Notes under the pieces: model-generated
Seen by the model: only the letters and a program-made list of their open reading frames with translations
What the model was told of the DNA's origin: nothing
Database searches by the model: none
Made by a program: the position numbers and the translations under genes
In this document: positions 6,943-36,467 of the stretch, piece by piece
How positions within the stretch are numbered: position 1 is the first letter of the stretch
How the letters are laid out: every line of letters starts with the position of its first letter
Origin: Daucus carota subsp. sativus
Taxonomy: Eukaryota; Streptophyta; Magnoliopsida; Apiales; Apiaceae
DNA: 64,000 nt
Reading direction: 5' to 3'
Assembly: GCF_001625215.2 (NCBI RefSeq)
Contig: NC_030385.2
Span: forward strand, 29,971,598 to 30,035,597

Positions 6943-7527
<585 letters not shown>

Positions 7528-10700: not shown

Positions 10701-10769
10701 TTACATCCACTATAAAATGTGGCTGGCATAGAAGAGGTTCAGTGAGTTGCTTTCTTTGGACAACAAAGC

Positions 10770-12557
10770 ATGTCAACAAGCAAAGTATTTAGGAGGGCAA
10801 AGCCCTTTCTTGCAGTCCTCTTCTTGCAGTTTGGGCTAGCAGGAATGGACATCCTTTCCAAAGCAGCACTAAACCAAGGGATGAGCAATTATGTATTCGT
10901 TGTCTACCGCCATGCCATTGCCACCATCGTAATTGCTCCTTTTGCAATTATCCTCGACAAGTCTCTCTCTCACTCTCTCAGTTTAATCAATTATTTTAAG
11001 GTGCCAACATCTAAATTGAATTATGTACAGGAAAGTAAGGCCAAAGATGACAAAGGCGATGTTCGGAAAGATTATGCTTCTTGGCCTGTTAGAGTAAGCT
11101 TTTAAAGATTATAAGATTATATTAATAAAATCCTACTCAAAAATTTTATATCCTTGTGTGATTAAACATATTTCTTGGTTCTGCAGACCAGTTATCGATC
11201 AGAATCTTTATATTATGGGGATGAAAAACACGACGGCAACATTTGCAGCCGCTATGTGTAATGTGTTACCTGCCATAACATTTGTCATGGCTTGCATTTT
11301 TGGGTAAGCTAGTATACCTACTTCATTTCCTACTTTAGTTGATCCTGCTAAAGATTTTTTTACTAAAAAAGGAAAATTAAAAGCACAAACCCACAAAGCA
11401 GTCGCATTCTAACATGTATAAAATTTCTCGTAGACTTGAGAAAGTTAAATTAAAGAGTATCAGAAGCCAAGCTAAGGTAGGCGGTACACTAACTACTGTC
11501 GGGGGAGCCATGCTCATGACGCTTGTCAAAGGGCCAATTATTGATCTAATATGGACAAAAGGAAGAACAGGAACCCATATATCCCAAACAAATGGCGGCG
11601 TGGATCTTCAGCATTCAGTTAGGGGTTCACTCATGATCACAGCGGGGTGCTTCAGTTGGGCTTGTTTCATGGTTCTACAAGTAGGAATCTACACACTACC
11701 TATATTTTTCTCTGATTAATCTACAAAATATTTTAGACAAACTATAACTTTTGTTTTAGGCAATTACACTCGAGACCTATCCTGCTGAGCTCTCTCTAAC
11801 AGCTTGGATATGCCTGATGGGCACCGTGGAGGGAAGTGTAGTGGCCCTTGTAATGGAGAGGGGAAATGCTGCTGTTTGGTCCCTCAACTTGGACACTAAA
11901 CTACTAGCAGCTGTCTACAGTGTAAGATGGATTTTACGTGCTTATATTGACAGAGTGCCATTTATCTACTTGTATTTAAGGTTTACCCAACGCTAAGTCC
12001 CTAACATCTCCATTCATCATGGTCTAATGAAGCTCCTAACTTATCTACTTGTACTAATTTAATAAAATCTTACAATATGCTTAATGAAAAATATGCAGGG
12101 CGTCTTTTGTTCAGGGCTCGCTTATTATGTGCAAGGAATAATAATGAAAGACAGAGGACCAGTTTTTGTGACGGCATTTAATCCACTAAGCATGATCATT
12201 GTCGCTGTCCTCGGATCCTTCATCTTAGCGGAACAGATGTATCTGGGAAGGTAAAGCCCAAATTTGCTTCTCAATCATGTATAGCTAAAAATAATAGTAT
12301 CCTTCTCTATATGTGAATAAATCAAATCCTGATTAACATCTGCAAACTTTGTTTACAGGGTAATTGGAGCTTTTGTAATAGTTGCTGGACTTTACCTTGT
12401 TGTATGGGGCAAGAGCAAAGATTATAAATCCGATACTAAGACCCCGTCCATGGACGAACAGAAAACAGCAAACTTTGGACAAATGAGAGATGCAAGTAAC
12501 ACTAATGACGAAGAAAACCACAAGGTCATAACCATTAATGAATCTACAATGAAGTAA
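10770..12557 (+). CDS. WAT1-related (UMAMIT/EamA) transporter, copy 1
   Basis: Predicted multi-pass membrane transporter of the plant drug/metabolite superfamily (MtN21/EamA, WAT1-related), whose members move amino acids or auxin-like compounds across the plasma membrane or tonoplast. Seven exons (10770-10960, 11031-11093, 11187-11303, 11434-11680, 11760-11921, 12099-12250, 12359-12557) keep frame through all GT-AG junctions and give 376 residues. Landmarks are AKPFLAVLFLQFGLAGMDI at the N terminus, VRPKMTKAMFGKIMLLGLL in exon 2, TYPAELSLTAWICLMGT in exon 5, DRGPVFVTAFNPLSMI in exon 6 and LYLVVWGKSKDYK at the last membrane segment. The tail is short, hydrophilic and rich in N, D and E. A TATA box (10711) lies 59 bp upstream. 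It is in tandem with the copy at 16159. The substrate cannot be told from sequence. Confidence 0.9.
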
Positions 12558-14688
12558 GAGGAGAAGGAATCGTACAAGGAATACAACACTAGTCTGTTGC
12601 ATTACCTTTTCTATAAAAAATACAACAGTCATCTTAATTTCAGGGGCAATATCCAACTAGGAAGAGTACTTGTAAGCAAAAGAAGTGGAAAGGAGTTGGC
12701 AATGCATAGTACTTCTCATCAATTTTCGAACATGTATATATAATATTATCATCTAATGTAATAAGAAATTACTATAATTTTTGCAAATACTGTTCTCATA
12801 ATAGCGTTGTTGATAAAAACATTGTGAAACTAAATATCTTTCATATCACCATTCAATGCCTCGCTATCACTCCCCTTCTCCCTGTCAGATAATTGTGTGC
12901 ATGTAACGGGGGTCAAGTGTCTACCTCTATCGGCTTGATATGTTGTGTGTGTGTCTGTATGTGCGCTTGAAGAGTTACACCAGGAGATACTTTCACCAGA
13001 ATCCAGATATTCACCTTATATGTGACAACTTAACATGGCATGATCCTGCTAGCCTCCTAACTTGTAAATGAAAAATAATATTAATAAAATATCGCCCCCA
13101 AAAGATGTACTTAAGTTCTCATCCTCGAGTACACTGTGCACATGCCAGGAGCAACTCTGGACATGGAAACGAATTGTAAAGTAAAGCAAAAACACTCTCA
13201 TTGAGTTGAAACATTTTGTTTGATAACAGTGTACACTGAATAGGATGATGGTCCATAATCCTATTAATGATGGTTAGAGCATCTGCTACAGTTTTGGCTA
13301 AATTAGAAATGCAAGATATTGTGCAAATTTGTTGAATCTCTAAGAGATTTTGTTTGGATGATACAATCTATATTGACTATATTTTGAAAATGATATGATA
13401 TTATTATTTTGAATTATTATAAATAGAAAATATTAGTTTAATATGGTATTATGGTAATATATGATGTGAATCTTGCTAAAGGTATGATTATATATGATAT
13501 GAAATCTTGCTACATGTAGGCTGATCAAATATGATCAAATATAAACAACATTAGTTATTCACTATTATATTATATCCTTAATCCTTATAGATAAAAAGCG
13601 TATATAGGATAATTTGGTTGTTTGGTGTAGAACCCTAAAATAATATTCCTTTTATATTCTAAACAAAACAAATAGAGATTTTGTAAAAAACAAACGGAAG
13701 CAAATTTTATAATTAAAATATGACTTCTATTTCTTATATGTCTAAATACTGCAATATAAATACGAACCGTTAGATCTTATTTTTGATAAACAGTTAAGAT
13801 TACAAAATAAATAAAGATAATTCTGTATAATATTTAAATATAATATATAATTTATACTTTTGATGTTCAAAATCAATTAGAAGTGGTTCTTGTAATTAAA
13901 TATAATATGTCCCCTATTCTTTTTATGTTCGAAACAAAATAGAAAGAGGTTTTATAAAAATAAAATACAAGTAGGTTTTTTAATCATAATACGATTTTTA
14001 TTCTTTTTATGTTCTAAAACCCAATAAAAAGAGGTTTTGTAAATAGAATATGACTATTATTATAAAATCCATAACTACTTTTACTACTTCCTATTTTATG
14101 TTCTCATCAAATATAGTTGTTAAATCATTGCTAAATCTTTTATTTTACTAAAATGATAATCTGGATTTAAAAATTATAAACTAGCATATAAAATATTGGT
14201 AACATAATTTATAAAGTAAATCATTATTATAATACATCTACTATATCAATAAAAATATTTTTAAAAATATTTGTACATCATATAAAATTATTTAAATAAA
14301 TTTATATTTTCAGAAAATATTTGTGCATGACACGAATTATAAGCTATCTATACTATACAATAATTAGCAAACACGGGTATAATTTGTAATACTAAATTTT
14401 TGTTATGTTTTTATTGTCTAGTCATGTTTTTTTAGTCATTCCTAAATTATCATGGCTTGAAAATGAAAAAGGGAAAAAATCCAACACTTAAATACCAGTG
14501 GAGCCTCTAGAGGTCACTTACTTTCAGATGATTAAATAGTTCGAAAGACTAGAGGTCAAATTATTACTATATTGTAACTGAAGTGGTTTCAGTGTTTTTG
14601 TTCTAGGTTAAAACTGAAGTGGTGGTAGTGGATGGTATTTACAGTGAATTTAAATTTACTTGAATCAAGATTGTATGTATATCATGTA
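12558..14688. other. AT-rich intergenic stretch with degenerate repeats
   Basis: No gene recognised. A degenerate motif (about TTCTTTTTATGTTCGAAACAA, then AGAGGTTTTGTAAA) recurs near 13645, 13915 and 14000, spaced about 80-270 bp apart, suggesting an old, diverged local duplication series. Confidence 0.5.
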
Positions 14689-15002
14689 CTCCTTCCGTCC
14701 CATTAGATTGTATACAGTTTCTTTTTTGGGACGTCCCATCAATTGTATACATACAAAAAATGGTAAACTTTTATAATATAAAAAACTTAACAACACCCAC
14801 TACCTTCTTCCACTACACCCACTTTATACATTAAATATTAGTAGGTCCCACCATTTTACTAACACTACACTCATTTTACACATTAAATATTAATGGGTCC
14901 CACCATTTCACCCACTTTTCTTACTTTTCATCACCAAATTACACTTTTTCTTAACCTCCGTGCCACTCCCCATACGTATACTAGTCAATGGGATGGAGGG
15001 AG
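14689..15002. mobile_element. Stowaway-type MITE
   Basis: The ends are CTCCTTCCGTCCCATTAGAT and ATGGGATGGAGGGAG, flanked by TA at 14687-14688 and 15003-15004. GTATAC motifs just inside both ends also pair. The 314-bp element is non-coding. Confidence 0.88.
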
Positions 15003-15226
15003 TATGTGCTTAGAGATAACATGAAGGTTGGTAATGTTGGAGGGGAAGTGTTGATTTTGTTACACGTAGATATACATGCAAATGTGTCGACGTGTTGATG
15101 GAGTAACTCAAATCAGAGTGTTGATGCAATAACTCAATTTTTTGTCTTTGATTTTGTGGATATTCAAGGTGTTGTGAATATCTTCCTTGAATTTCTAATG
15201 ACAGGAGATTTAGGTGGAAAATGGTA

Positions 15227-15795
15227 CTCCCTCCATCTCATTTTAAGTGTCCATTTTGCAAATTTCACACATATTAAAAAACAATTAATGTAAATGTTTT
15301 GATCATTATCTTCCACAACTAACCAGCTTAGTTTTCATACATAATAATTATGCACCTCATTAATTACTCTGTATTTGGACCTTTTTTCACTTCAAATTAC
15401 ATTTATTACATTCATAATCCCTCTAAATACATTTATGATTCTATATTGGAAATAGTATAAAATTTACATGGATTAAAGAGTATGACACATAGGGGCCATT
15501 TGGGTGAGCTTAAAATGAGTGCTTCTTGCTTAAAATTAAAAAGTGGAGTAGAAGTTAGAAGCAAGTTAAGACTTATAAGTAATTAAAGTGTTTGGAAAAT
15601 AAGCAGAAGCCCTGAAACAAAAGCTAGCATTCCTAACTTTTTATAAGTGCTTCTCGACTTTTTAAACATACGGTACGAAATAAGTGCTTCTAACTTATAA
15701 ACCAGAAGCCCGGCTTTTAAGCCGAAAACAAACACCCCCATATTTTGGGATTTTTTCTTTTGGCAAAGTGGACACTGAAAATGAGATGGAGGGAG
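15227..15795. mobile_element. Stowaway-type MITE hosting a second MITE
   Basis: The outer ends are CTCCCTCCATCTCATTTT and AAAATGAGATGGAGGGAG, with TA at 15225-15226 and 15796-15797. The inner parts AAGTGTCCA and TGGACACT also pair. It is longer than related copies because another MITE (15492-15739) sits inside it. Confidence 0.88.
15492..15739. mobile_element. MITE of the GGGGCCRTTTGGGTGAGC family, nested
   Basis: It starts GGGGCCATTTGGGTGAGC and ends with AAACACCCCC, flanked by ATA on both sides (15489-15491 and 15740-15742). The body carries the motif AAGTGCTTCT and its complement near both ends. Relatives are at 47657-48174 and, on the other strand, about 62740-63502. Probably Tourist/Harbinger-like from the 3-bp duplication, but that is inference. 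Confidence 0.75.
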
Positions 15796-16158
15796 TACAA
15801 GACAAATCTACATGCATATGCTCCCAAGTCCCAATTCTGTTCTGATTATACTTTATCTCTACATCTCTGAACTTTACAGTTGTTCTAGCAGAAATTTGTA
15901 CTATCCCAATTCTTTTCTTCATTCCATTCTTACCAATTTTAATTTTAACTCAGCTCACCAATTTTAAGATACCTACTAATATATTTTTCACAAACCTCGT
16001 TACAAAATATAAGTATCATTTCATTTATAAAAAAAATCTCACCCTTCACCTCTGCCAACATCCATTTGACCGCATAAGTTGGTCCATATTATATCATCCC
16101 CATTCGTTCTATAAGGCATAAAGGAGGTCTAGTGAGAGTTTTCTCTAAATAACAGATC

Positions 16159-18031
16159 ATGCCAAAAAGCAAAGTGTTTTCGAGGGTTAAGCCCTTTCTT
16201 GCAGTTCTGTTTTTGCAGTTTGGGCTAGCGGGGATGGATGTTATTTCCAAAGTTGCACTCGATCAAATGATGAGCACCTATGTGTTTGTCGTGTATTACC
16301 ACGCTATTGCCACTATTCTTACTGCTCCCTTGGCAATCATCCTCGAGAAGTCTCTTTTGCACTCTTTCTCTTTGTTTCATTACTTATTTAAAGGTGAAAT
16401 AATTATATTGATCTTTGTACAGAAAAGTGAGGCCAAAGATGACAAAAGCAATGTTTGGAAAGTTTATTCTTCTTGCCTTACTAGAGTATGTTGATACTAA
16501 TAACATCCTATATACTTGGAATTTGTGAATCTTCATGTGAAAAGTCCAACTCAATATTTTGCAGACCAGTTATTGACCAGAATCTCTATATGATGGGGAT
16601 GAAAAACACGAGTGCCACGTTTGCAGCTGCTCTATGTAACATTTTACCTGCCATAACATTTGTCATGGCATGGATTTTTGGGTAAACAATTATTAATACT
16701 TTCTACCTACTTTGGTTGTCCAAACAAATCGATGAGTCCTTGATAGAGAAAGTTTAATGTCGAGTAGAAATCCTACATCTACCTGTGGGTAGACATTTAG
16801 TAGAAATCTATTTCAATACATATATCTGGTTTCTGGCAGGCTTGAGAAGGTTAAGTTGAAGAGTATCAGAAGCCAAGCTAAAATAGGCGGCACACTGACT
16901 ACTATCGGAGGAGCCATGCTCATGACGTTTGTCAAAGGACCAGTTATTCATCTAATGTGTACAGAAGGAAGAACCAATCCTGTTCAACGAAGTAATGGAG
17001 TAGGTTATCAACATTCACTAAGGGGTTCTCTTATGATAACTGCTTCATGCTTCAGTTGGGCTTGTTTTATGGTTCTACAAGTGAGAATTTACATATCTTC
17101 TGTAATTAAATTTTGCCAAATCTGCTATGAAAAACCTTATTTTTCCCTCTATCAGGCAAATACACTAGAGACATATCCTGCTGAGCTCTCTTTAACAGCT
17201 TGGATATGCCTGATGGGCACCGTGGAGGGGGCCGTACTTGCCCTTGTAATGGAGAGGGGAAATGCTGCTGTTTGGTCCCTCAATTTCGACGCTAAACTAC
17301 TAGCAGCTGTCTACAGCGTAAGGACTTCTATAAAAAGTATTTGTACAGATTATCAGTTATCTACTTGTGCTAAGGTCTTACCCAGGGCCCAAGATTCCTA
17401 GACCAGCAAGATTTGGGGAAGGTACTAACTTTAATTACCTGCACTAATTTAATTATATCTTACAATTTGTTCAATAAAATATGCAGGGCATAATTTGTTC
17501 AGGACTCGCTTATTATGTTCAAGGAATTGCAATGAAAGACAGAGGACCTGTTTTTGTAACGGCTTTCAATCCACTGGGCATGATCCTTGTCGCCGTCTTA
17601 GGATCCTTCATCTTAGCAGAACAAATACACCTGGGAGGGTAGATACCAGACTCACTTTTCAATCATATATAGACACAAACCTCCAAAAAAAAGGAGTCTT
17701 GAGCTTAAATTAAATTAAGAAGAGCTTAAATAATATTTATACCTTTGTCTGCAGGGTCATCGGAGCCTTTGTGATAGCTGTAGGAGTTTACCTTGTTGTG
17801 TGGGGTAAGAGCAAAGATTACAAGCCCCGGGACCTGTCAATAGACAATGAAAATGCATTGAAGTCTGAACAAATAATAGACGTAAGCAGAATGAATGATG
17901 AGGAAAATCACAAGGTGTCTGAACAAATGATAGAAGCAAGCAGAATTTATGACAAGGATCATCACGAGGTTCTAGCCATAAGTGAATCTATGGAGGAAGA
18001 AAAAGAATCAGACAAGACTCTTGTAAATTAA
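16159..18031 (+). CDS. WAT1-related (UMAMIT/EamA) transporter, copy 2
   Basis: Tandem paralogue of the gene at 10770, with the same seven-exon layout: 16159-16349, 16423-16485, 16565-16681, 16840-17080, 17156-17317, 17487-17638, 17755-18031. Five exon lengths (191, 63, 117, 162, 152) match copy 1 exactly, exon 4 is 6 nt shorter, and the frame is open, giving 400 residues. It shares VKPFLAVLFLQFGLAGMDV, TYPAELSLTAWICLMGT, DRGPVFVTAFNP and VVWGKSKDYK with copy 1. The cytosolic tail is longer because a 54-nt block is tandemly duplicated (17864-17917 and 17918-17971), giving two 18-residue repeats starting SEQIIDVSR and SEQMIEASR. A possible TATA box (TATAAGG) is at 16110. The product is an integral membrane transporter; the substrate is unknown. 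Confidence 0.9.
17864..17971 (+). repeat. 54-nt in-frame tandem duplication in the transporter tail
   Basis: Two adjacent 54-nt units encode related 18-residue segments, each starting SEQ(I/M)I and ending H(K/E)V. Copy 1 at 12359-12557 has only one such segment, so the duplication arose after the paralogues split. Confidence 0.85.
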
Positions 18032-18108
18032 ATAAAGCTTTTAGCTGCTGTCTACTCTTCTTAAATAAAACAAATGCAAAAACTTATTATAAAAACATCC
18101 TAGTCTTA

Positions 18109-18531
18109 GAGGGGTGTATTCGATCGAGATTTTAATGGATTGTTTTTAGTCCATGGATTTTAATGGATCATATGTAATTTTGATTTTGTGCGGATTCTTG
18201 ATATAATGTCGCAGAGTTGATAGGATTTAAGCACAATACTTCGAAATCCCATTGATTTTGGTGGGATTACAAAAAACTTAAAATACACTAAAGAATGCCA
18301 CAAAATCCATCAATTTATGAAATCCAAAAATATCCATCAGCATTTGAATACCATCAGATTTTAATGGATTTTAAACAATCTCAATTGAATATCATCGGAT
18401 TTTAAAGCATAATTTAAAATCCCAATTGAATACCTCAGGATTTTAATGGATTTCAAACAATATCAATCGAATACCCTCGGATTTCATGGGCGCAAAAAAA
18501 TGCTTTAAAATCCCAATCCAATACACCCCTC
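18109..18531. mobile_element. PIF/Harbinger-type MITE (GAGGGGTGTATT family)
   Basis: The ends GAGGGGTGTATT and AATACACCCCTC are flanked by TTA at 18106-18108 and 18532-18534, the TWA-type 3-bp duplication expected of PIF/Harbinger. The 423-bp body is made of variations on TTTTAATGGATT and its complement. It lies 78 bp past the stop codon of WAT1 copy 2, so it may fall in its 3' UTR. Relatives are at 61711-62641 (two copies) and about 40625-41010 (decayed). Confidence 0.85.
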
Positions 18532-19442
18532 TTAGTGGATTTATAGAGACTTGACTATAATCTTTTAATAATGATAATCCCATGTCCGCTTTTTAGAAAA
18601 ATAATTTCTAATATATTGCATGTAATAAAAATAATACTTGTTAGAGGCAATAAAATAATACCTCCTCAACCAAGTATTACAGGAAATTACATAGTCCTAT
18701 ACTCCTATCCTTTAAGGTGAACAAAACACATGTAAGATTGTAGTTTCTTAACGGGCTAAATATACTAGGACCAATAGTTATGAGACTGTAATCTATGGAC
18801 TATAATTCTCTCAAACGAATATAGCCTAAGAGTTATCATATATAAACCATAAGTGGGAAGGAATTGGCATTGGATTCAAGTAATTCAACCCACTTTCATG
18901 ATTGCTTAATGCTACTATGAAAACATCTATATAATTTTATGGAATAAGTGGTTACTACATTCTTTGCTAATACTGCTCTGACAATCACGCTTTGTCAATT
19001 ACAATAATGCGAAAATAGGAGTTTATATATATGTGTGCGTCTTCTCATTTGGCACGATATTAAGTGTCTAATTGTCCTACATAATCATCAGAATTGGTAA
19101 AGATATCCAAAGGTTGGAGGATTACTCATTCCATCTTCTTCCGATCCCCAAAAGGTAGGCTGACTCTTCGATTTATCCCTAACTGCAAATAGCCAAACCT
19201 TTGCTTAAAAAAATATAAGTGCAAACATTTGGTTTATAATTGTTTAACCACTCATTTTATCTTCTAGCTTGACTTCAGATTGTAGTTAAAGTAGCACAGA
19301 ATGGAAAACAATAAAGAAGCTTAACAGTATCAGGACAAATGAATAAATCCAGAAAACTACTGCAAACAAGCAAAAATATTTAATAACTATCTTAGTAGGT
19401 TAGTGCGTCACCCCCAGATCCCCATTAGTAATATATATATAG

Positions 19443-20005
<563 letters not shown>

Positions 20006-20470
20006 AAATGATCTTTACCCAAATGATTCAAGGAAATATAATCATAATAATGTACAGGGTAACTAAAGAAGATACATAGACTGTTTCTCTTAACTGCTCA
20101 AAATTTTAAAACATGAATTAATATCGGTAACCGGGTGACGAGAGCATTACTCATGATCCAAAATTTTATCCAGAAGTGTTGCTTGACCGTGAACTCGATG
20201 TCATATGGAAAATTCTGTTTTCTTTCGATAATTGCAGGACATCCATATCTTCTCTACCTAGTCTCGCTCTTTCAGTCCAGAGGCCAAACGAAAGCAACTA
20301 AAACAAAATGGTGTGCTGTGTTTTGCAATGTCCTACTCATTGGTAAATTAACCCCCAATTCCATGTCCCTGCCAGAAAAATGAACATCTTAATAGCCTCC
20401 TAGATTAAATCAAGATGCACGTGGATTGGATAGAGTGATCTGAATGAATAATTATGAGCACCACTTTGTA

Positions 20471-22700
20471 TATGGGCGTTGACCCTCACTATCGCAATTT
20501 TTAAGAAAAATGCCTTCAAATACCGGTTCCGGAGAAGATGGCCGCGAGCTATCATTTTACGATTCAAAACCCTAAATTCTCTAGTGTTTATTCTCCTTTT
20601 CTTCTTAACACTACACGATCTACGTATTGAAACCCTAATGCTATAGCGTTTTGCTCCTAAAATGCCGGATTGTGTAGCGTTTTGTAGGGTTTTTCAATCC
20701 CAAACACAAAATGATCTAGCTGTCTTCCAAAATCATAATGCTAGATTATCCGGCGTTAATAAATGGTTTACGAGTCATTTTTTTTATTATGTTATTTTGG
20801 ACATTACTCGTGAGTTTTGTGATATCAGGGGCCTTTATCTCTCTGTATATCCACCCAATTTCGCAGACATGCTTACACCGCCACATTAATTAAAATGTGG
20901 TTGATACTTGAAGCTACCTAATAATAAAAAAGCGAGCCCATAAAAATTAAATTAACAGTAGCATGGGCATGATGAACTAAAAGATATGTTTATTAAAAAT
21001 AGAATGCATGAGAGTGAAGCTTCGGAGTTTGCTTACCAGAGTAGTAGCCCTGGAGGAAAAACGTCGTCATATCTTTCGCTCACCTTTCTTCGCACATCTT
21101 CGTGCTTCACACAGAGGATGTTGGGAAGGCTAGACAGGCCCTCATTATCATATCACGTTAAAAAAATGGACACCTGAAACCGTTTATTTTTTTTTTCTTT
21201 TTTTGACAAAACACCTGAAACCGTTTATTAATCCTACTTCACGTGATGTTTGGGATATTCATTTCTTTACATTTTTTTAGGTGACTTACACATAGACGCA
21301 TATAAAATATAGTCATAACTCTTTTTTTTTGAAAACTTTTCTTATTTGTATAAAAATTTAGATATTCAGAAAAAAACTCAAAATAATTTATCAAACTATA
21401 TCTTATGAGAGATTCGAATGCATGCCAACCCTAGTGTAAACAATTGTGGAGGACTTAGGGATTATTGTTTTGTTGATTGTCTAGCATTTTGCTAGGGATT
21501 TAACATCTATTATTTTCTGTTAGGATTTAAAAAACATACCGTATTTTGCTGGGTTAAAACAACAAACTGCTACATAATTCAACGTTTTCTTCTCAAATTG
21601 AAAACACTACATTATCCTACGTTAATAATTGGTATTTAAGATTATTTTTCACAACTATGTTATTCAGGACATTACTATCAGATTTTATGAGATATGGGAC
21701 TGATTTTCTTATTTTTATATATATAGTTCAATATACGCGATCATGATTTTTTTAATTGATTATATTAATTTTTCTTATATTAATTTATATTATATATATA
21801 GTTCAATATACGAGATCATGGTTTTCTTATATTAATATTTCAGAGAGTTCAATCCTAATTTTATGTTATCAGTAACTTATAATTATTAGAAATAACAAAA
21901 GTCCGTGAAATTGATAGATTATTCAAATTAGTGATGCTATAAATTTTATCACTAAAAATCATGTCAATAAAATAAATCATTTATAGAATACACATGCCAC
22001 CTCGGCATTTTAAGTTATTATGTCTATTTCATTCGATTCTATACAATTTCTTTTTTGGGAAATTCTCTAAATATATTTATTTGAAAAATAGTAAATATTT
22101 CATAACAAGAAAATAAAAAATAATAAAATTTTATAATATAAAAGTTTGATTATACTATTTTTTTTCTATTACATACTAAATTACATTTTTTTTAAAATCT
22201 TGTTCGTGTATACTATGGGACTGAGGGAGAATATTTTAAACTTCAGATAAAATCACTTGAAGTTCAGGTTTAAATGTAAAACAAACAAGATCATGGCTCA
22301 AGTCGGAGACTCTCAATCTAGAGTAAAATTAATAGTCGGAATTAGTTGAAATACAAATACATGAAAAACATTGCATTTTATATTAGAAATTCTTATGGAA
22401 AACTGGTGATCAATATAGCTGAGCTATTAATCCATTGCAGTACTACTGAAGAAACTCCAGTCGTTTATGTTAGTTTAAAGTTGATATAAATCATGAATTA
22501 ATCAACTTGAAACCACTTTTCCAGGCTTTAAATAGTGGCCAGGATTGGAAGAGGGAGGATCACCATTCTCCATTTCTCCTATATAAGGCAAACCTGCCAA
22601 CAGAGAAAGCATTTACACATTGATCAAAAGCAAATGGAGCACCCCTTGCTGAATTATGATGAAGTATTTACAAATTGAGAAAGTATTTTAAGTTACAGAC
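20471..22700. other. Intergenic stretch with diverged duplications
   Basis: No gene recognised. About 20730-20845 and 21600-21710 are diverged copies of one segment (both contain CGTTAATAA, TATGTTATT and GGACATTACT in order). A short duplication GTTCAATATACG(C/A)GATCATG occurs at about 21726 and 21801, and ACACCTGAAACCGTTTAT at 21169 and 21210. About 22020-22235 resembles a decayed Stowaway MITE (CATTCGATTCTATACAA at one end, GACTGAGGGAG at the other). Confidence 0.5.
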
Positions 22701-22706
22701 CATTGG

Positions 22707-22964
22707 AATGAAAAATGAACTATCTTATGGACAATTTTTAAGAAATTTCATTCTTTCCTCCATTCCATTCCTTACATCATGTGCTAGATATCACACCTTC
22801 AATTTGAGTGGAATGCTCCATTCTCTCTCATCCTCAATTTCTTCTCAAATCTCATCATAACAATTTTGCACTTCCTCAAATTTTTTCTAAAACTTTCTTC
22901 CTATCTCTATTAGTTTCAAGTATTTTTACTCATTCCATTCCATTCTCCCCAACCAAACACAACA
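22707..22964. mobile_element. Left-truncated MITE, same family as 8077-8349
   Basis: From GAATGAAAAATGAACTA to CCCCAACCAAACACAA it parallels the complete element at 8077-8349, including the long segment beginning TCCATTCCATTCCTTACATC. The left terminal repeat is absent and a few small insertions are present (CTAGATATCACACC near 22783). Confidence 0.8.
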
Positions 22965-23104
22965 TACTCTTATCCATTTAGGTCTCTACTGTGATTGCCA
23001 GAGAAAAGGAAAAACACATCTTTTTCTACAGCACCACTGGTATAGTTTATAGATTCTCACTGGTAGAACCTTGAAACAGGCCCAACCGAAGCATCCAGCA
23101 GTGA

Positions 23105-23545
23105 TCACATAGGTACATCTTGTTCAGGACAAGCTTATTATAAGCATGGAACAACAAGACAGTGTACCTGTTTTTTAACCGCCTTCTAATTAAATGCACA
23201 AGAGTATTGTCGCTATCCTTGGATCCTTCATCTTAGCTGAACACATGTACCTGGAAAGGTGAATCCAAAGTCACTCTTCTATCATATATGATAATATTAT
23301 ATTTATAAAATTATATACATAAACAAATGAAATAAAAGCCTAATTGTATGTCAAAATTTGTTTACAGGGTAACTGGAGTCTTCGATTGTTGCAGGACTTC
23401 ATCTTGTTGCAATTGATAAGAGCAAAGATTACAAGTCCGAGTCCAAACAAAATGATAGAAGCAAGTCATAACAGCAATGAGCAATGAATCTACTGAAGAA
23501 GACAAGAAAACAAACAGCCAGAAATTGCCACCCCTACTAGTTTGT
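23105..23545 (+). pseudogene. WAT1-related transporter pseudogene, last two exons only
   Basis: About 23110-23261 matches exon 6 of the intact copies: TTGTTCAGGAC then GCTTATTAT, and GGATCCTTCATCTTAGC then TACCTGG. About 23369-23520 matches exon 7 after a TTTACAG acceptor, with GAGCAAAGATTACAAGTCCG and a run of Asn/Glu codons. Stops and frameshifts break it: TTTTTTAACC replaces the Phe-Val-Thr codons of the GPVFVT motif, and there is an insertion in the GVFDCC region. Exons 1-5 are not found upstream. It sits tail to tail with the intact 5-phosphatase gene. Confidence 0.85.
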
Positions 23546-24513
23546 TAAAGTTCTCTGGTTCTGCAAATTCCCCATATAAAAATTTATTTCCAGGAGGTTA
23601 TTCTTAAGAGCAATCCAACAGAAGAGTATTGAAACAAGAGAAAAGTAGGCAATGCACTGGAATTATTCTCAGCATTTTCATAACTGTCTAGCTGTGCATG
23701 CTTACACTAATATTAATATGTTGATTATACAGGTAGTCGGGTACGATAAGTCACAAGTGCGTGTATGTTGTCAGAATACAGTCAAGCGACTTTCATGAGT
23801 TAGTATATACACAAAACAAGTGTTACAAGCCAATATGAAGGGGAAATTTAATGTACAGTACTGCAAAGTTCTGGTACACAAAACATAAATTTCATTTAAC
23901 TGACAAAATTGAAGAGATGAAGAAATGAACAACAATTAACAATTCTCCCACCTGTTTCCCATTCTACATACTACCTTACAAACGGCTTATACTACAAAAC
24001 TATTTACCTTCTCCCTCTATTTTCCACCTAATCCAATGATTCTCTCTGAAGTTCAAACAAAAAAACACTATCTTCTGCAAGAAAAAACTCAGAAAGCAAT
24101 AATTCCTAAATCGAAAGGCCTAAGCAGCAGCATCTAGCCACCTTTATGTTCATATCTCTACATGAATGTGCACACTCTGCAGTCTGCACTTCCCATCGGA
24201 CTATCATCATCTTCTACTACCAGATTACTGTATGAGTAGATGAAATATATGCTTCCGCGATGTTTCCCTGATCAAACCATGTATCAATCATCCATAGGCA
24301 CACCGGACGTGATCATCTATCAATATGTATAAAAGCATTGATATGATCTCTAGTAATATAATTTTAGCACTACATATTAAAGAAGCTAAACCCACATTGC
24401 AGATACGCAATCCCTAAAATTTGGCTGAGACAACTGCATTGTCAGGAACATGTTCAATGGTAGTTGTCTAGTTGCAGAGTTTAACAGTTGTCAAACCCTC
24501 CATTGATGACTAC

Positions 24514-27500
24514 TCATGAAGCTATGACTGCAAACTGGTGGGTACTTTTTATGCAAGTCTGTGCTCCATTTAGCAACAACATATCTTGTGGGAGTAGTAG
24601 TCCACACGGTTTGTTGGACGTGTTATGGAGTTCAAACTGGTCTGGAACATTCATTTTGACTGAGAATAGTGAACAGACTGGTCTGTGATCCGAAAACTTG
24701 GACTCAACCCTTTCATACCATATCTGCTTTAGTCCTTCGCCTTTCCAAAGTATTCTGTCACACCTGATAATGTTTCCACATGTCAGTAATAATGCATCAA
24801 ATTTATATAGTGATCAATCACAAGTATTTCATTTGAAATAGTACAAGCTCCTCAAATTTGCAAAACACCAAAAAATTTATTCCCCAAATTGTTCTTATGC
24901 TTATAAGCGTTTTTATGTAGGAATATTTTTGCAGGTAGTAGGAATGCAGTGCGAAACATCTAGGATTAATTTAGCCATCCTTCATGTGAAAACAATAAAA
25001 TATCTGCAATTGGACGGTCCAGAGTTGTGATATTAATGTCAGTTTTCTCTGACTAGATCCTCACAGTAATTTAGTAGTACTGCAGTACATTCTTATCATA
25101 GGAGTACAATAATATATCTTTCCCAACTTAATTATGTCAAGAAATCTACATAAAATAGTATTATACCTGAAGTCATAAGATCAATATATTTTATCTTCAG
25201 TTTTTAGAACATATCTAGATATTTTAAATAACCAATTGTAATCTAACTCAAATAATATTAATTCATATGTTTACGGTATAATTTAATGGATGCCCCTGTC
25301 GGGTTGTGTTTGGAAGTTTTAGAATATGGAAGAACTTAGAGGGAAAAACTAATACAAGTTGCCAGTGGAGTACTCTACCTAATGCAATAGAGAATTCAAC
25401 TAGAGGATTGTATATTGAGATATTAGAAACAGAGAAAGTCAACTTCTTATGTTGAAAATATATATCAACTAAGATTCAGTAAGTTTTGGACTTTTAGTGA
25501 ATGCCTTAGCAAAAACAATACAGAATATGTATTGTATGATAGTTTACGTTAACAGCCTCTATAATCCTGAGGTAGGTAAGGACTACGTGCATTCAAACCT
25601 ACCGCAATATGTTTGGTTGATGGTTATGTATTGTGTAAAGTATATATAAAATAAAGATCATTCATGTTTAAACTTGTAGTAAAAACAATTAGGTGCCCAG
25701 GCAAAAGAAAATTTAGAATCTTACCAAGCAGGAGTTCGTTGCTTCTCTTTAGAAATGGAAGTTTGTCCTACATACTCATCAGAGTTGGTAAGATATTTAT
25801 AGGTTGGAGGAAAATTTATTTTGCCTTCTTCCCATCCCTCAAAAATACGGCCGGCTCTTTGCTCTCTTTTCAACTGCAAGTAGCCAAACCACTGGTTAGA
25901 TAAATATTAGTGGCAATACATGTTGTCTACATAACAACTGATAACTCATTTCATCTTCTAGCTTGACTTTAGCTCTCATTTAAATTAGTCGGGAAAAGAT
26001 AAAATAGTTGACAGGCTTAAAAAAACAATGAAGAGATCCAGAAAAGAACAAAAACTGCTGAAACTAAGCAAAATATTAGGTGTGGCACCTGATCTTTCTC
26101 CAAGAGCGCTTGCCAGTCATTATTGTTGAGTAGCTCATTAGTGTCAGCACCAGATGCCAGTCGGTAATTTAGATCACCCAGCCAAATGATTTTACTACAG
26201 TGATTAACAGAAATAATAATCAATACAATATTCTAGCTCTATTAATTTTTTGAGTTTACACAAGGGAATGATGAAAAGCTTACTCATGATCCAAAATGCT
26301 ATCAAGAGGCCTTGGTTGTCCACGAACTCCACGTGAATGAGGAAACCTAGTTTTCTTTAATATCTCCATGACATCCATATTTCTCTTTACCTCGTCTCCC
26401 TCTTTTTGTCCAGAGGCCAAGTGAGTGCAAACGAAACAAAATGTTGTGTTGTGCAGTGTCATACTCATTGAAATGGATCCCTGCAACAACACAGCGAAAA
26501 TGATAGAAATAAGAACAACAGTTCATAGGCATATATCTGTAAATGTAATAAAATAGATTTAGCATAGATTAATTTGAAAGGTTCCAGAATTGAAATATAT
26601 GCATGAATACCTTGTTTCCAAGGTATCCCATGATACCCCTACCAACGCAGGAAACTTTTAGATTGCTGATATGGCTATACAAATCTGAGCGGACCCATAT
26701 GCAGAGAAAAAGTCCCACCATTTGCTTACTTGCTGCTAAAGTATAACCATTTTCTAAGGGACAATCTAGCCCCATTGAGAACCGAGGCGAACTTGATAGA
26801 TCTTCACCACTGGAGCTTGAATGCCTTAAAAATTCTGCTTGGCTGAATTTAGCATCACTGGTGCAATCGTAGCAATCAGGAGATTGTGGATCAACATTTT
26901 GACTATTTAGAGCTTGTCGAATGATGGAAAGCCATTTCGCAGCTGGGCTAGTGTCCTCTGCACCCAAAACATTTCCTGCATTTAGGGGTACGATCTCCTG
27001 AAACCTGATTTGCATTGCAAGGATATAAAAGGTAAGTGAATGGGTTATAAAGCAAAAAACAATACTATAGTTTTAGCTAAAAGCAAATAAATTTAATTAG
27101 GCAACCACTTAAAAAAAACTTGATATGAACATAACAAACGAAAGGAAATGTAAAAGCCGATTACTCAACACACATTTACGCCATAGCTAAGAAAACAAAA
27201 ATAAAATAAAATCAGAGATTGAACTGTTAGAGAAAGTAGGTGTAGCAGTAGTACCCAAGAACGTAGATATCGGCCAGGGCATGAGTAGTTAGCCAGTGGT
27301 TTAAGTCCATGTCCTCCTTTGGTGATAATCCTCCAACATTCCATGTCCCCACGGCCATCCTACAAATATTTACACCTTATTAGCCTCCATATTCATTGAC
27401 TTACTCAGTATCTCAGTTGTAACAAGCATTAATTTTTCCTGTATACACTTAACTAGGAATATCACCAAGTGATGGATTATTGCATAACATTTCTGGGGTT

Positions 27501-28403
27501 TTTTCAAACTTTAACTTTCAACTTGAATACTACAATACAAATTCATTTAGCACACAGAATCAATCCATGTGAGTTGAGCTTAAAAAATCTGAATACAATA
27601 TTTTCTAGACTATCATATTAATATCAAGAACTAAGCTCATGTAAAAAATAAATAAAAATAAGCGTAAAACTAACATTGACTGACCTGAGATTGAGTGGAT
27701 CTGTGACCCGAGGCATCTCCGGACTAAATCTTGAGATGTCCATACTTTCATCCTTTGACCCTATCACCCACTCTTCTGCTTACAAATACCATCATAAACT
27801 TCAATCAGGTAATCATGTATTATTGACAACAAAAATCTATGCATCTTTCGAACCAGAATATGTAAGCCAGATAAATTTTTTGCCCCTCGAGCCTAATTCT
27901 AAACTTTTTTTATTATTATGGCTAAATTATAATAAACTGATTAAAACATGAAACATGGCATTCACATAATAACAATATGCTGATATCAAAATTTGTTGAC
28001 TATATGACTAAAATAATGAGCACAAAAAACCATCCTGGACCACCAGTAACTTACCGGAAAATTCCTCAGGCACGATCGCACAACTGTTTTCACCGGAGTA
28101 ACTCGTCCTTCCATCTCTTCTAGTTTCCGGCATACCTATATTCTCTAATGTCAATAACTCAATACATAAAAACCCGAACAAAAGAATCCGATTAGGTGTC
28201 AATAAGGCGCACCTTTGACTGAGTGATCCGAATAAAATTCATCAGCACCACTCTGTATGTTCAGCCATTTTCTCACTACTTGCTTCGGCCACGAAGACTG
28301 CTGAGATTCATTACAGTTTCACAAATCAACAACATTTTAAACATAATCACCAACACATAACATTAATGTATAACACATCAAATACCTTCAATTGTCGAGT
28401 CAT
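24514..28403 (-). CDS. Type I inositol polyphosphate 5-phosphatase
   Basis: Removes the 5-phosphate from inositol phosphates such as Ins(1,4,5)P3 and, in some members, from phosphoinositides. Ten exons (28386-28403, 28213-28297, 28055-28135, 27685-27775, 27255-27359, 26611-27004, 26284-26480, 26089-26194, 25725-25873, 24514-24763) stay in frame over 1,476 nt, giving 491 residues. The short start MTRQLK is followed by [15 protein letters not shown], as in plant type I enzymes. Catalytic landmarks are GTWNVGG near 96-102, [14 protein letters not shown] from 128, CTHLASG in exon 7, WLGDLNYR at 328-335, FPPTYKY in exon 9, RTPAW/CDRIL across the exon 9/10 junction (W409) and SDHRPV at 432-437. All phosphatase-superfamily motifs are present, so it should be active. 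The insert after the FQEI motif is long and Ser-rich, as is common in plants. The subfamily member is not assigned. Confidence 0.93.
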
Positions 28404-31400
28404 CTTTCTTGATCAATCTTAGTCTGATCCAATGCCTCTGTAGAAGAATTATATGAGAAGCGATTCCAGCACATATCAGAGTCAATATAAATGTGTGTCT
28501 AATCAAAATTGCAGAATGAACAATCTGTCATATTTAAAGAAGAAGTTCTCCGAATTATTATATTAAAATGAGCATTCAACTGGGAATAAATAACGTCTAG
28601 TTGCTGGGGTAAATGGAGACAGCTTCTGAAGAAGAATATCTTACTGAATTACATATAATTAACAGCAAATAAGTGCAGATATTTATGAATTACATGCATA
28701 AAATATGCTGTAGAAAGGGAGAGGTGATGAATAATATTAATATTGATCTTGTTTTGAATTTACCCTGAGGAGATTAAGACTTTACAGAGGGGAGCAGAGG
28801 GGATATTTTAAACAAGGGTGAGTGATGAAGTTGTCGACATATATATATTATTGAAGCTTTTTTTCGAGATCTCTGGTAATAGAAATTTCAGAGCCTTTTT
28901 CATATTCATCTCACCTGTGTATAGCTTGTTGGTAACAAAGTTAAAAAGATTACTTTAGGCCGGGATATAAAGAATACGAGTATCTATAAAACATCATGAC
29001 AACATATGCAGCTTTGCATATATATAAATATTAAAATTTGAGAAGATTGTTTGTAACCTATACTTATGATTACACCTAGTTTTAAACGAAATAAGATCAA
29101 ACACGAATCGAAATTGTGCCTTCTAAAAAAGAATTTCATGAATAACATATAAATATATAATAACATATTTGTACTATAAGACTTTTGAATAAGGAAGTAA
29201 ATTTCATGAATAAAAAATATATGCACACGATTTTCAAATGAGGAAGAGAATTTCGTGAATATGAATGTTTATATTCATATAAATATACAAATTTTCGAAT
29301 TAGGAAGTGAATTTCGTGAATAAAATGTTATAGAATTTTATCTTATTTTCTGATTTTCCGTTGAAGTGTGTATCGGATCTGTGAAGAATGTCACATGGTC
29401 ATCCGAATTGCACAATGGTTTGGAATCAAAAGGCCACTTATGTAGATGTCAATCAAATCTATAAAAACCAACAAAGATTTGACACATACAAATAAAGTAC
29501 AAGATGGAATAACTCAACCCCTTGAGGCTTATGCATAGAAAAACAAAAAATAACCAAGAAATAGAATGAAAGCACATATTGGAATCATGCAAATGAAAAG
29601 GCTGCCCAACAAGAAACATGAGAATACCCTTACATGTGTAGAGCCAGAAAGCTGGGTGGTTACTGGAGTTGGCTATGTTTCAACGACTGATGTGAAGGAG
29701 CAAGAAAGCTTGCATCTCCTTGTCCACTTTTGGCCACCTTTTCTTGCTTTTGAGAGGAATGATTGACAGATGATATATATGTAAACAGTGTTATTGGCTG
29801 TTGATCTGAGAGAATGTGGTAGTAGACTAGTAGTACTAGTAAGAAGTATGGGAGGTGTTTCCTAGGAAAAGCAAATTGGTGCAGCTGTTTCCGTATATAT
29901 ACAACCTCTTTGGCTCTCATCTTACGTAGAAAGAGAACCAGTGGAGGGACATGCTTCTGTGCTTTCTTTCTCTTTGCTTCATTTTCCTTCTAGATTTAAT
30001 TTTCAACAATTATTGTAACTATGGAGGACCATGTTAAGTATACAAAGAAAAAGATATTTTTTCGTTAATAGCCTATAAACAAATATTAGGAAATAAACAC
30101 AAAATTGAGTGCAAAATGACTTGACAATTAATATGGGATGTTTTAATTGATATTACTTGTATCATTATAAAATATACTCCAATCAAAACTTAACACATGT
30201 TATCTTACGAAAGATTTTATAATCAAATTTGTGCATGGAATATCATCCCTAATAAAATTGAACTTAACATATATTTTTAACTGACACCGAGGCTTCATTT
30301 GGAAATAAAAAGTCATAAATGTATTTCGGGTTACAAGTCGTGTTTGTGTCAGCAATCTGGTCGATTTCGGGTCAAGTTATAATCACTTAAAATTGAATAA
30401 AAGTGAAAATTGAAAATTTTAAAAATAAAATTCTAATTTCATGTCAAAGGGTGATTTTCAGGTCAATTTCGGGTTTTGTCTCAGTAAATCGGGTTACGGG
30501 TTTGGGTCGGGTCTGATATTGCCATGAGCCCAAACAGTTAAAGGCTTATCTCTCAAGTCTGGCTATAAGCCATATTATTAAAAAATTAATTGATTAATTA
30601 ATTATTTTTTAATTAATCTAATTAATTTTTGTTACCTGCATTCAGTTTGAACTCTTAATCTTATTGGCGTGTTTTAGGTAAAGTGCATTATTACTTGGGG
30701 TATAATAGTCAGGAGAAATTAAGAATCTCGCCAGACCGCAACTGAAAAACACTTTGCTACTTTTAGTTTGTCTTGTCGCCGCTTTTAGGCTAGAAAAGCA
30801 GGCAAATGTTAGTTTCAGATTTATTTTTAGTTTAGTACATTTGCAGTGACCAGACGGCGTGGTCTATTGCAGTAACATGATACTATTCCAATTTTCGATC
30901 AACGTTACAAAAAAGCGTGATAGCTATTATTCGAATAAAAACACATATAATACTATTCAACGCTAATTACATTAAACGAGTACAAAAGATTAAAAATATA
31001 TCGAATGCTGTCTCCGATTATTTAATGCGTCGACCGGCCTCGAAACAAGGCGTTTACCGCAAGTTAACGTAATTTGACAAAATCGTAAAACAGAAGTTAC
31101 ATGCGTTTAAATGAGATCAAGATGAAAACGAAACTAGATCCGGAAAAATGATAATGAATTGGAATACATTGACAGCACGGTTAGTTTAATTAGTAGAGCA
31201 CAAACGTGGCTAAGTGGATGAAAAGCTACGAGCTTTGCGCTTTATTTATAAGATGTTTTGTAAAAGGCTAGTGCCTAAACATGTAATTAGGGAACAAGTG
31301 TGATTATGCATCGCATTCATTGTATTAGGAAGATCTTAATTCTTATGTATTAACTCAACCATGGATGGCTGCTGCACCCACCTGTTTGTTCTGGTTGATC

Positions 31401-31921
31401 AAGTCTTTCTCAATTGTTTTGGTATTAACTAATGGCTCTGTACTGCCGTGCACTTGTGCATCAACTTTACGGACTACATATTTAAACTCTACAGTATTTT
31501 GATATATATAAAAATTTCTTCAATTTTGAAAAATTTAGCACGTTCATTTAACTCCAAATCGAGATTTAGAATTATAATATCATATTAAATAACCAACTCG
31601 TGATTTAGAATTATAATATCATATTAAATAACCAATTCGTCTAAAACGTGGTAGAGGAAAACTATCACGTGAACTCTTGTCTAAACAAAAGTCATTCAAC
31701 AAATTTCTCACACATTCCGAACTAATTTTAGAAGAATTCACTGATTAATATTATTATTAGCTTTTTTAATCCTCGGCGCTCAATTCATGTCTTTCCTCTA
31801 TTTTTCTAAGTCATTTTAATTATATATATATACGATTTTCGATTGTATAAATAAAAAATTAAGATGTGAACAAATACAAAGCCAAAATTTAACAATTTTT
31901 ATTCTAAACAGTACAACGTAT
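28404..31921. other. Gene-free stretch upstream of the 5-phosphatase
   Basis: No gene recognised. A degenerate motif, GAATTTC(A/G)TGAATA, recurs at about 29128, 29200, 29249 and 29308, probably an old minisatellite. About 30330-30510 has repeated CGGGTT and GGGTCGGGT motifs of the kind found in some plant MITEs. ORFs at 29566-29766 (+) and 29660-29920 (-) overlap on opposite strands and match nothing known to me. Confidence 0.5.
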
Positions 31922-31930
31922 TTATTAAAA

Positions 31931-32123
31931 CGGTTTTTCTATGATGTGCCCATGGGCACATGCTAAGCGCGGAAAATTTTGTGCTTGGATCATTTTGATT
32001 GGCTCCTATCTAATGATAATGGTGGACCCCCTGCAAATACACCAACCAAACCAATCAAAATCTCCCAAAATACAAAAATTTCCGCGCTTAGCATGTGCCC
32101 ATGGGCACACACTAGCCAAACCG
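31931..32123. mobile_element. Mutator-type MITE with palindromic subterminal repeat
   Basis: Inverted ends share GTGCCCATGGGCACA and then GCTAAGCGCGGAAA (right-hand copy on the other strand). The outermost bases are CGGTTT and AAACCG. It is flanked by an exact 9-bp duplication TTATTAAAA (31922-31930 and 32124-32132), the length typical of Mutator-like elements. Total 193 bp, non-coding. Confidence 0.82.
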
Positions 32124-32132
32124 TTATTAAAA

Positions 32133-33093
32133 AATCAAAACAATTTTATAAAAAATAAATGAAATGTTAAAATATTGTGGAACCGAGGGATCATATGCAG
32201 CCAAACCATTGACCAAAGACCTGCAGACAACGGTGAGGGAGTAGGGGCCACTGGTTGTTATAATAGTCAAACTTTCTTATATGGTTAACTTGACGGGTGG
32301 TTTAACGTTGCCTTGACTGTACATGAATCACATATATTCGGTGATTAATCTTTGCATGATATCAATGCATATGCGCACACAACGATTGAAAGGGAATATT
32401 GTAATCCATGCAGCCAAATGGGCAATTTCTAAGGCAGATTCCAACGATTACAAACATGTTGAATTTTATTTTTTTGGAGGGTGTTGACTTTAGTATTATC
32501 AAACAATTCAACCAGTTGAAATAAGATATCATTATCATTTCAGTCCTCGCTATTGGCTCATCAGTCGATTTCAATTTTTCCCATGTTCATGCTTGTTTTC
32601 TAAGAGAAAGAGATCATCACATATGGGGAGATTTGATTGAATTTTGATAATAGTGTGTGCAGCCAAAATTGCAAATTCTAAGAATATGCTTCGTTTTTAT
32701 CTTTGTTTCACACTGAATCTGAATCGACTGTGTCCTCCAAAAGTCCCGTATTGGAAGATTCGATTCGTGTTTGTGTACATTGTTTGCAAGATTAAACTCT
32801 TACTAAGTTTTATGGTGTTGACTCTTCCGATTCGTCAATGGAGCTTTAAGATGTAAATAATCAAAGAATTTGACAGGAGAAAGTTAAAACGAGTTCAATT
32901 TCTTTATAAACAGTTTGATCTTAAATATAATTTTGTAATAAATTCAGAAATTTGATTATGATAACTCAGTAATTCGTGATCGAATTTAGGTAATATGTTC
33001 GAGAACAAGATTGTGAGAAGTTATACAAGGATCGCTTGGCTCTGACTATAAGAAATTTTATTATTTAAGATAAAAAATGGATTATAAATGATA
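32133..33093. other. Gene-free stretch
   Basis: No gene, repeat or RNA was recognised here. ORFs at 32362-32574 and 32644-32856 have no recognisable features. Confidence 0.5.
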
Positions 33094-33648: not shown

Positions 33649-33671
33649 ACACCTGCACTGAACCAGACTTT

Positions 33672-36241: not shown

Positions 36242-36417
36242 TAGGGGCGAGCAGGAAAAACCGAAACCGCAAAAAAAACCTAAAAAAACCGAAAAACCAC
36301 ACCGAAAAAAACCAAACCGCAAATAAAACCGAAAATAACCGAGATAAAAAACCGAAATTAGTGGTGCGGTTTTATTTTCGGTTTTATGCTAAAACCGCAC
36401 CGAAATTAACCGAACCG

Positions 36418-36467
<50 letters not shown>

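What the first reader, a model, noticed from the sequence alone, without database searches (positions are those of the whole stretch)
16159..28403. Duplicated convergent gene pair with opposite partner lost in each copy
Copy A has an intact WAT1-like gene (16159-18031, +) followed by decayed 5-phosphatase pieces on the minus strand (19075-20470). Copy B has a decayed WAT1-like gene (23105-23545, +) followed by an intact 5-phosphatase (24514-28403, -). Gene order, orientation and even intron sequence match. The simplest history is one tandem block duplication followed by reciprocal decay, which restored one working gene of each kind but moved them about 6.5 kb apart. A third WAT1 copy at 10770 shows the array expanded more than once.
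Basis: partly seen in the sequence, partly recalled or inferred. Interest (0 to 1): 0.75.

Follow-up and report, generated by a model that had tools for sequence, protein, structure and literature searches.

The report
Plant gene pair duplicated, partly lost
A neighbouring pair of plant genes (a WAT1-like transporter and an inositol 5-phosphatase) was copied side by side long ago and different members then died in different copies, leaving two transporters, one phosphatase and broken remains: a clear example of an ordinary evolutionary process.

Summary
Copy A has an intact WAT1-like gene (W2, 16159-18031) followed by collinear minus-strand relics of a 5-phosphatase: exon 9 with part of intron 8, exon 7, exon 2. 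Copy B has a wrecked WAT1-like 3' end (W3psi: exons 6-7 plus an inverted exon 4/5 piece) followed by an intact 10-exon 5-phosphatase (P2). A collinear locus on contig C4 keeps one intact W and one intact P, convergent and 0.9 kb apart, the likely ancestral unit. Relics keep intron sequence and no enclosing repeats were found, so retroposition or TE capture is unlikely. The interpretation needs changing. A third gene, W1, is intact, and it, not W2, is the constrained copy with the conserved left flank; W2 evolves three to four times faster in protein. So decay did not restore one gene of each kind. Three W and two P copies need more than one duplication, and no P exon was found between W1 and W2. 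W3 may have been born truncated. Tandem duplication and the C4/C5 split have similar silent divergence (0.5-0.7); their order is open because the outgroup search did not complete. An ordinary birth-and-death locus (tandem duplication, differential loss).

The parts
10770..12557 (+). W1: intact WAT1/UMAMIT-like gene, 7 exons, 376 aa; positional counterpart of the C4 gene
   Evidence: exon model with GT-AG introns; EamA Pfam E 3.7e-24; pieces of 9534-12778 collinear with C4:33646081-33649457
16159..18031 (+). W2: intact WAT1/UMAMIT-like gene, 7 exons, 400 aa; protein-divergent copy with an in-frame 54-bp tail duplication (17863-17970)
19072..19294 (-). psiP: relic of 5-phosphatase exon 9 and part of intron 8
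   Evidence: 73.6% to 25763-25988, E 7e-30; exon 9 score 370 vs shuffle max 215; intron part 77/96 identical to P2
20147..20342 (-). psiP: relic of exon 7, stops in all three frames
   Evidence: 75.3% to 26280-26470; score 568 vs shuffle max 231; frames
20412..20521 (-). psiP: relic of exon 2
   Evidence: score 180 vs shuffle max 167 with P2, 187 vs 151 with the C4 gene; alignment
22979..23107 (-). W3psi: inverted piece of WAT1-like exon 4 end, intron 4 and exon 5 start (exon 5 part weak)
   Evidence: 58 bp at 84.5% inverted to 17034-17091, 65 bp at 83% to 11634-11698, exon 5 part 36 bp at E 0.036; alignment
23117..23545 (+). W3psi: relic of WAT1-like exons 6 and 7 with intron 6 (BLAST similarity ends at 23443)
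   Evidence: stops in all frames
24514..28403 (-). P2: intact inositol polyphosphate 5-phosphatase-like gene, 10 exons, 491 aa
   Evidence: Exo_endo_phos2 E 5.9e-75; INPP5B, OCRL and synaptojanin chains E 4e-55 to 2e-50
23884..24513 (.). W-P intergenic stretch, collinear with the C4 intergenic stretch
   Evidence: 23884-24871 vs C4:33649485-33650413 at 64%

Best explanation
An ancestral convergent pair (WAT1/UMAMIT-like transporter, then an inositol 5-phosphatase on the other strand, under 1 kb apart) was multiplied in tandem on this chromosome by DNA-level duplication, at about the same time as the C4/C5 segmental or whole-genome duplication. Different members then died: P after W2 (relic psiP) and W before P2 (relic W3psi); a P after W1, if it ever existed, left no recognised exon. 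Shown: relics, order, orientation, intron sequence, the intact C4 pair, neutral-looking change profile of both relics. Inferred: number and order of duplications, and that repeat insertions widened the gaps. What survives is W1 and P2 at the outer ends, which match the C4 pair in flank and constraint, plus W2, an extra open copy under weaker constraint. The process is tandem duplication followed by differential loss.
For: Self-comparison and C4 comparison. Outer-end collinearity, in pieces, of 9534-12778 and 23884-29984 with C4:33646081-33654624. Three further anchors to the left in the same order. Exon-by-exon shuffle test. Intron 8 sequence kept in psiP. Private changes at codon positions 1/2/3: psiP 20/22/13, W3psi 16/23/10, against W1 0/0/16 and C4W 1/2/10. 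Silent divergence: W1-W2 0.61, W1-C4W 0.68, W2-C4W 0.61, P2-C4P 0.50; RPS15a anchor 0.47 +/- 0.10.
Against: No outgroup was obtained (genome search did not complete), so the tree of copies is unrooted. Four-way site patterns are few: 5 vs 2 vs 3 in exons 6-7, 13 vs 6 vs 6 with the intron, 4 vs 2 vs 1 in the inverted piece. No duplication breakpoint is preserved: the gaps gave only marginal matches to W or P flanks (best E 5e-4 and 8e-4). W3 may never have been complete.
Confidence: 0.8

Rival explanations
1. Partial-copy model (a variant of the best explanation): the second duplication had a breakpoint inside W, so W3 was truncated at birth and only the redundant P of copy A decayed. The loss is then not reciprocal decay of two whole pairs.
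For: No W1 exon stood out at 20522-22960. W3 private changes show no functional period, 16/23/10 by codon position.
Against: psiP has the same profile (20/22/13), so early death alone does not single out W3. A repeat at 22704-22965 (86% to 8112-8352) abuts the W3 remnant, so later insertion or deletion could have removed its 5' part. The inverted piece shows that W3 was rearranged. A marginal match of 22349-22401 to the stretch upstream of the C4 W (55 bp, 72.7%, E 8e-4) could be a trace of a W3 upstream region.
Confidence: 0.4
2. Older-array model (a variant of the best explanation): the tandem array predates the C4/C5 duplication, and C4 later shrank back to one pair by unequal crossing-over or deletion.
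For: With exon 5 left out (a choice made after seeing the data), silent differences W1-W2 (102.5 of 221 sites) equal W1-C4W (102.7 of 222), and W2-C4W is slightly lower (93.7 of 223), summed. Exon 5 of W1 and W2 is unusually alike (8 of 500 shuffles), suggesting local gene conversion.
Against: Intron 8 of psiP is closer to P2 (77/96) than to C4P (66/92). In intron 6 the C5 copies are closer to each other (JC 0.52-0.65) than to C4W (0.65-0.94) (about 100 sites). Only one W and one P were matched on C4 in the 40 kb compared. Confidence intervals overlap widely.
Confidence: 0.45
3. The relics are separate retroposed or TE-captured fragments, not parts of a tandem block.
For: Repeats lie near the relics: 18094-18536 between W2 and psiP, 22704-22965 beside W3psi.
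Against: Relics keep intron sequence, keep gene order and strand, and sit beside the right partner twice. The flanks of psiP (18032-19071 vs 20522-22700) and of W3psi (20522-22978 vs 23546-24513) share only 9-15 bp matches; 22300-24600 has no inverted repeat of 20 bp or more. For 18400-22600 one search listed 25 of 265 pairs, all in the AT array, so it says nothing there.
Confidence: 0.04

Closest known systems
Tandem duplication-random loss (TDRL) model of gene-order change, best known (recalled) from mitochondrial genomes
   Same: A segment of adjacent genes is copied in tandem and some copies are lost (definition read in passages of PMC13061750).
   Different: Nuclear plant locus; the order of live genes (W then P) has not changed, only copy number and spacing; one extra W is kept.
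Birth-and-death evolution of tandem gene arrays with gene relics
   Same: Arrays mixing live genes and relics; relics in 11% of tandem arrays in nine yeasts (passages of PMC2822764, abstract passage included).
   Different: The unit here holds two unrelated genes, so each relic sits beside a live gene of the other family.
DPY19L2: functional copy relocated after silencing of the ancestral copy
   Same: Loss of one duplicate moves the working gene to the other copy's place (abstract of PMC1475853).
   Different: There the functional gene lies at a new, non-syntenic locus inside low copy repeats; here any shift is a few kb at one locus, and W1 stayed in the ancestral place.

Membership tests
Tandem duplication with differential loss (TDRL / birth-and-death) | Two or more tandem copies of a segment holding the same genes in the same order and strand | tested here: met
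   W+ then P- seen in copy A and copy B, with relic exons in order
Tandem duplication with differential loss (TDRL / birth-and-death) | A locus with the unduplicated state | tested here: met
   C4:33647473-33653686 holds one intact W and one intact P, convergent; same genome, not another species
Tandem duplication with differential loss (TDRL / birth-and-death) | Different members lost in different copies | tested here: met
   P relic after W2, W relic before P2
Tandem duplication with differential loss (TDRL / birth-and-death) | Both losses happened to complete copies born in one duplication | tested here: inconclusive
   no W3 exons 1-3 found, both relics have a neutral-looking profile, tree unrooted
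WAT1/UMAMIT (plant EamA transporters) | Two EamA domains in a protein of about 350-400 aa | tested here: met
   Two EamA stretches in W1 and in W2. Subfamily name recalled; no solved structure matched W1 at E 0.001
WAT1/UMAMIT (plant EamA transporters) | Transport activity | not testable with these tools
   no expression or transport data
Plant type I inositol polyphosphate 5-phosphatase | 5-phosphatase catalytic domain | tested here: met
   Exo_endo_phos2 E 5.9e-75 over 96-439; INPP5B chain E 4.2e-55. The label type I is recalled, not tested
Pack-TE or retroposed fragments | Fragments enclosed by TE ends, or lacking introns | tested here: not met
   intron sequence kept; no enclosing repeats longer than 15 bp in the flanks compared

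The most novel reading that the evidence does not exclude
Loss was not random: the tightly packed convergent arrangement (0.9 kb on C4) is harmful in multiple copies. At this locus none of the surviving genes (W1, W2, P2) has a live convergent neighbour next to it, and W2, beside a dead partner and under weaker constraint, is taking on a new role. Selection against convergent transcription between duplicates would then drive the pattern.
Probability: 0.05. Interest if true: 0.5.

Novelty: new member of a known kind. Interest (0 to 1): 0.25.

Why it matters
It is a well-preserved nuclear case of tandem duplication followed by complementary loss, with an internal control (the intact pair on the duplicated C4 segment). 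It shows how copy number and spacing of neighbours can shift without any targeted rearrangement, and it warns that the nearest intact copy (W2) need not be the counterpart of the ancestral gene (W1). It does not change any general picture.

Tried and rejected
P relic between W1 and W2: no P exon found. Against the P2 gene and flanks (24300-30000) the stretch 12558-16158 gave one hit, E 0.45; against C4:33649288-33655500 (P gene plus about 1.8 kb beyond its start) it gave three hits, all beyond the start of the gene, the best 56% over 367 columns at E 5e-4 (14094-14452 vs 33654646-33654990). That hit could be a faint trace of a P upstream region or a chance AT-rich match; I did not resolve it. 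In the exon scan of four regions (12558-15480, 20522-22960, 5300-9500, 28900-33000) 25 exons of at least 40 nt (7 of W1, 9 each of P2 and C4P) made 100 tests against 40 shuffles each; 6 reached the reporting limit of 2/40, about what chance gives, and none was accepted. In the left-over stretch after copy A the marginal flank hits were 22349-22401 to C4 W upstream (E 8e-4), 22034-22178 inverted to C4 P upstream (E 0.003) and 21703-21773 inverted to 28969-29037 (E 0.006); none was accepted.

Dating by silent divergence: the estimates overlap, so the order of tandem and segmental duplication stays open. Unrooted site patterns were too few to decide. The MAFFT alignment of intron 8 misaligned the C4 sequence; it was replaced by pairwise alignments, and the exon 9 pattern counts that include that intron are not used. 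The first C4 P exon model had exon 3 started too far in, so the scan used a shortened C4P exon 3; it was corrected.

Two short W2 pieces sent to Pfam gave no family; the whole proteins did.

Arabidopsis neighbours: I recall that AT2G37440 is a 5-phosphatase next to UMAMIT genes AT2G37450/AT2G37460, which would make the pair old. No paper held two of these names, and 11 held at least one of AT2G37460, UMAMIT12 or UMAMIT13 (listing only, none opened). It stays a recalled lead. Species identity was not determined.

Literature on the pattern: searches were seen as listings only, except PMC1475853 (abstract), PMC13061750 (passages) and PMC2822764 (passages).

Full report
What is there. The window lies on contig C5 of a 441-Mb, 11-contig genome, whose gene content reads as a plant (inference). 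Three WAT1/UMAMIT-like copies lie on the plus strand: W1 (10770-12557) and W2 (16159-18031), both with seven exons, GT-AG introns and open frames and two EamA stretches each, and a relic W3psi (22979-23545). One intact 5-phosphatase, P2, lies on the minus strand (28403-24514, ten exons, 491 aa; Exo_endo_phos2 E 5.9e-75; best solved-structure match INPP5B, E 4e-55). A relic of a second phosphatase, psiP, lies at 19072-20521, minus strand.

Is psiP real? Self-BLAST finds two pieces, 73.6% and 75.3% identical to P2, at E about 7e-30. Smith-Waterman of each P2 exon against copy A and 100 dinucleotide shuffles gives exon 7, 568 (shuffle max 231), exon 9, 370 (215), and exon 2, 180 (167); with the exons of the C4 gene the scores are 529 (261), 360 (210) and 187 (151). 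The pieces lie in gene order. Exons 1, 6 and 10 do not stand out from shuffles. Isolated low counts for P2 exon 4 (1/100), P2 exon 3 (4/100), P2 exon 5 (6/100) and C4P exon 8 (1/100) lie out of place or on top of exon 7, fail with the other query, and were not accepted. The intron 8 part matches P2 at 77 of 96 positions, so this is a copy of genomic DNA. Exons 7 and 9 have stops in every frame; in the 89-bp exon 2 piece one frame stays open.

Is W3psi real? Exons 6-7 with intron 6 align to W1 (72%) and W2 (69%). A further 58-65 bp of exon 4 (83-84%) lies inverted just upstream (23043-23107), with intron 4 and exon 5 sequence following out to 22979, the last part at E 0.036. No W1 exon stood out further upstream (20522-22960).

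The control locus. The phosphatase search also hit contig C4. C4:33647473-33649287 is an intact W and 33653686-33650167 an intact P, on opposite strands, convergent, with 879 bases between (exon coordinates; open frames). C4 matches the outer parts of the window locus, in pieces: 9534-12778 (W1 with both flanks) against 33646081-33649457, and 23884-29984 (intergenic stretch, P2, its upstream side) against 33649485-33654624. W2 shares with W1 only about 45 bp upstream of its start codon. Three further genes left of W1 match C4 in the same order (window -2190, 3755 and 6886). Right of 31.2 kb only repeat-like matches were found on C4 up to 33,699,999. So C4 and C5 are duplicated segments, and one W plus one P is the likely ancestral state. 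The stretch between about 12.8 and 23.9 kb (W2, psiP, W3psi and repeats) is extra on C5.

Which W is the counterpart of the C4 gene? Of 372 aligned codons, private amino-acid changes are 14 in W1, 14 in C4W and 55 in W2 (12 more positions differ in all three). Branch dN/dS intervals (500 bootstraps) are 0.05-0.16 for W1, 0.05-0.14 for C4W and 0.23-0.60 for W2. W2 also has an in-frame 54-bp tail duplication. So W1 is the constrained copy and W2 the divergent survivor. This overturns the idea that reciprocal decay left W2 and P2 as the restored pair.

When did the relics die? In psiP exons 7 and 9, private changes fall 20, 22 and 13 on codon positions 1, 2 and 3. In W3psi they fall 16, 23 and 10, while W1 has 0, 0, 16, C4W 1, 2, 10 and W2 8, 4, 10. 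Neither relic shows the third-position excess of a working gene, so both died soon after birth or were born broken (inference; few sites).

When did the copies arise? Silent divergence is W1-W2 0.61 (95% 0.48-0.78), W1-C4W 0.68 (0.52-0.86), W2-C4W 0.61 (0.47-0.76), P2-C4P 0.50, and the RPS15a anchor 0.47 +/- 0.10. These do not separate the tandem duplication from the C4/C5 duplication. Exon 5 of W1 and W2 is unusually alike at silent sites (0.19; the lowest 54-codon window was reached by 8 of 500 shuffles, against 314 and 313 of 500 for the two pairs with C4W), which hints at local gene conversion. Without exon 5, W1-W2 equals W1-C4W. Pointing the other way, intron 6 is more alike among the C5 copies than with C4W, and intron 8 favours psiP with P2. 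In exons 7 and 9 psiP shares with P2 alone 7, 2, 6 sites at codon positions 1, 2, 3 and with C4P alone 1, 3, 7, which does not decide. Unrooted four-copy patterns lean to W2 with W3 (5 vs 2 vs 3 in exons 6-7; 13 vs 6 vs 6 with the intron; 4 vs 2 vs 1 in the inverted piece), too few to rely on. The outgroup search did not complete.

Mechanism. Kept intron sequence, matching order and strand in two places, and lack of enclosing repeats argue for DNA-level tandem duplication. Three W and two P copies need at least two duplication events, or one triplication with one P lost; a P after W1 was sought and no exon found, with one marginal 56% match to C4 P upstream sequence left unresolved. Repeats (15224-15798, 18094-18536, 22704-22965, and an AT array at 19845-20003) probably widened the gaps.

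Verdict. It is a tidy but ordinary case of tandem duplication with differential loss.

Noticed in passing
window 33130-39340, minus strand: Long open frames read as a non-LTR retrotransposon (LINE): reverse transcriptase-like frame of 899 aa, endonuclease-like frame, and a zinc-knuckle gag-like frame (labels recalled, no domain search made).
   Followed up: no
window 61710-62602: An 893-bp near-perfect palindrome (97%), related to the repeat 18094-18536 between W2 and psiP (83%); that repeat also has relatives at C4:33668411-33668864.
   Followed up: no
window 15224-15798: A 575-bp element with 39-bp terminal inverted repeats (GTACTCCCTCCATCTCATTTTAAGTGTCC...), Stowaway-like by recall, just upstream of W2.
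   Followed up: no
L010 about 7808-8428 (window -2190 to -1570): The C5 copy of an unnamed gene appears to have an in-frame stop (RVW*W) where the C4 copy at 33618977-33619552 is open, so another C5 duplicate may be dying.
   Followed up: partly
window 17863-17970: W2 C-terminus carries an in-frame 54-bp tandem duplication (two copies, 81% matches) absent from W1 and the C4 gene.
   Followed up: partly
W1 11760-11921 and W2 17156-17317: Exon 5 of W1 and W2 is unusually similar at silent sites (0.19 vs 0.36-0.57 in the other exons; 8 of 500 shuffles), possible gene conversion.
   Followed up: partly
window 3755-4475, 6886-7524, 46357-46755, 54423-55195: Neighbouring genes read as histone H2A, RPS15a, RPL23a and an RPA1-like OB-fold protein (names recalled). 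The first two match C4 in order.
   Followed up: partly
window 14094-14452: A 56% match to the stretch upstream of the C4 phosphatase (E 5e-4), lying between W1 and W2: a possible faint trace of a lost phosphatase after W1, or a chance AT-rich match.
   Followed up: no
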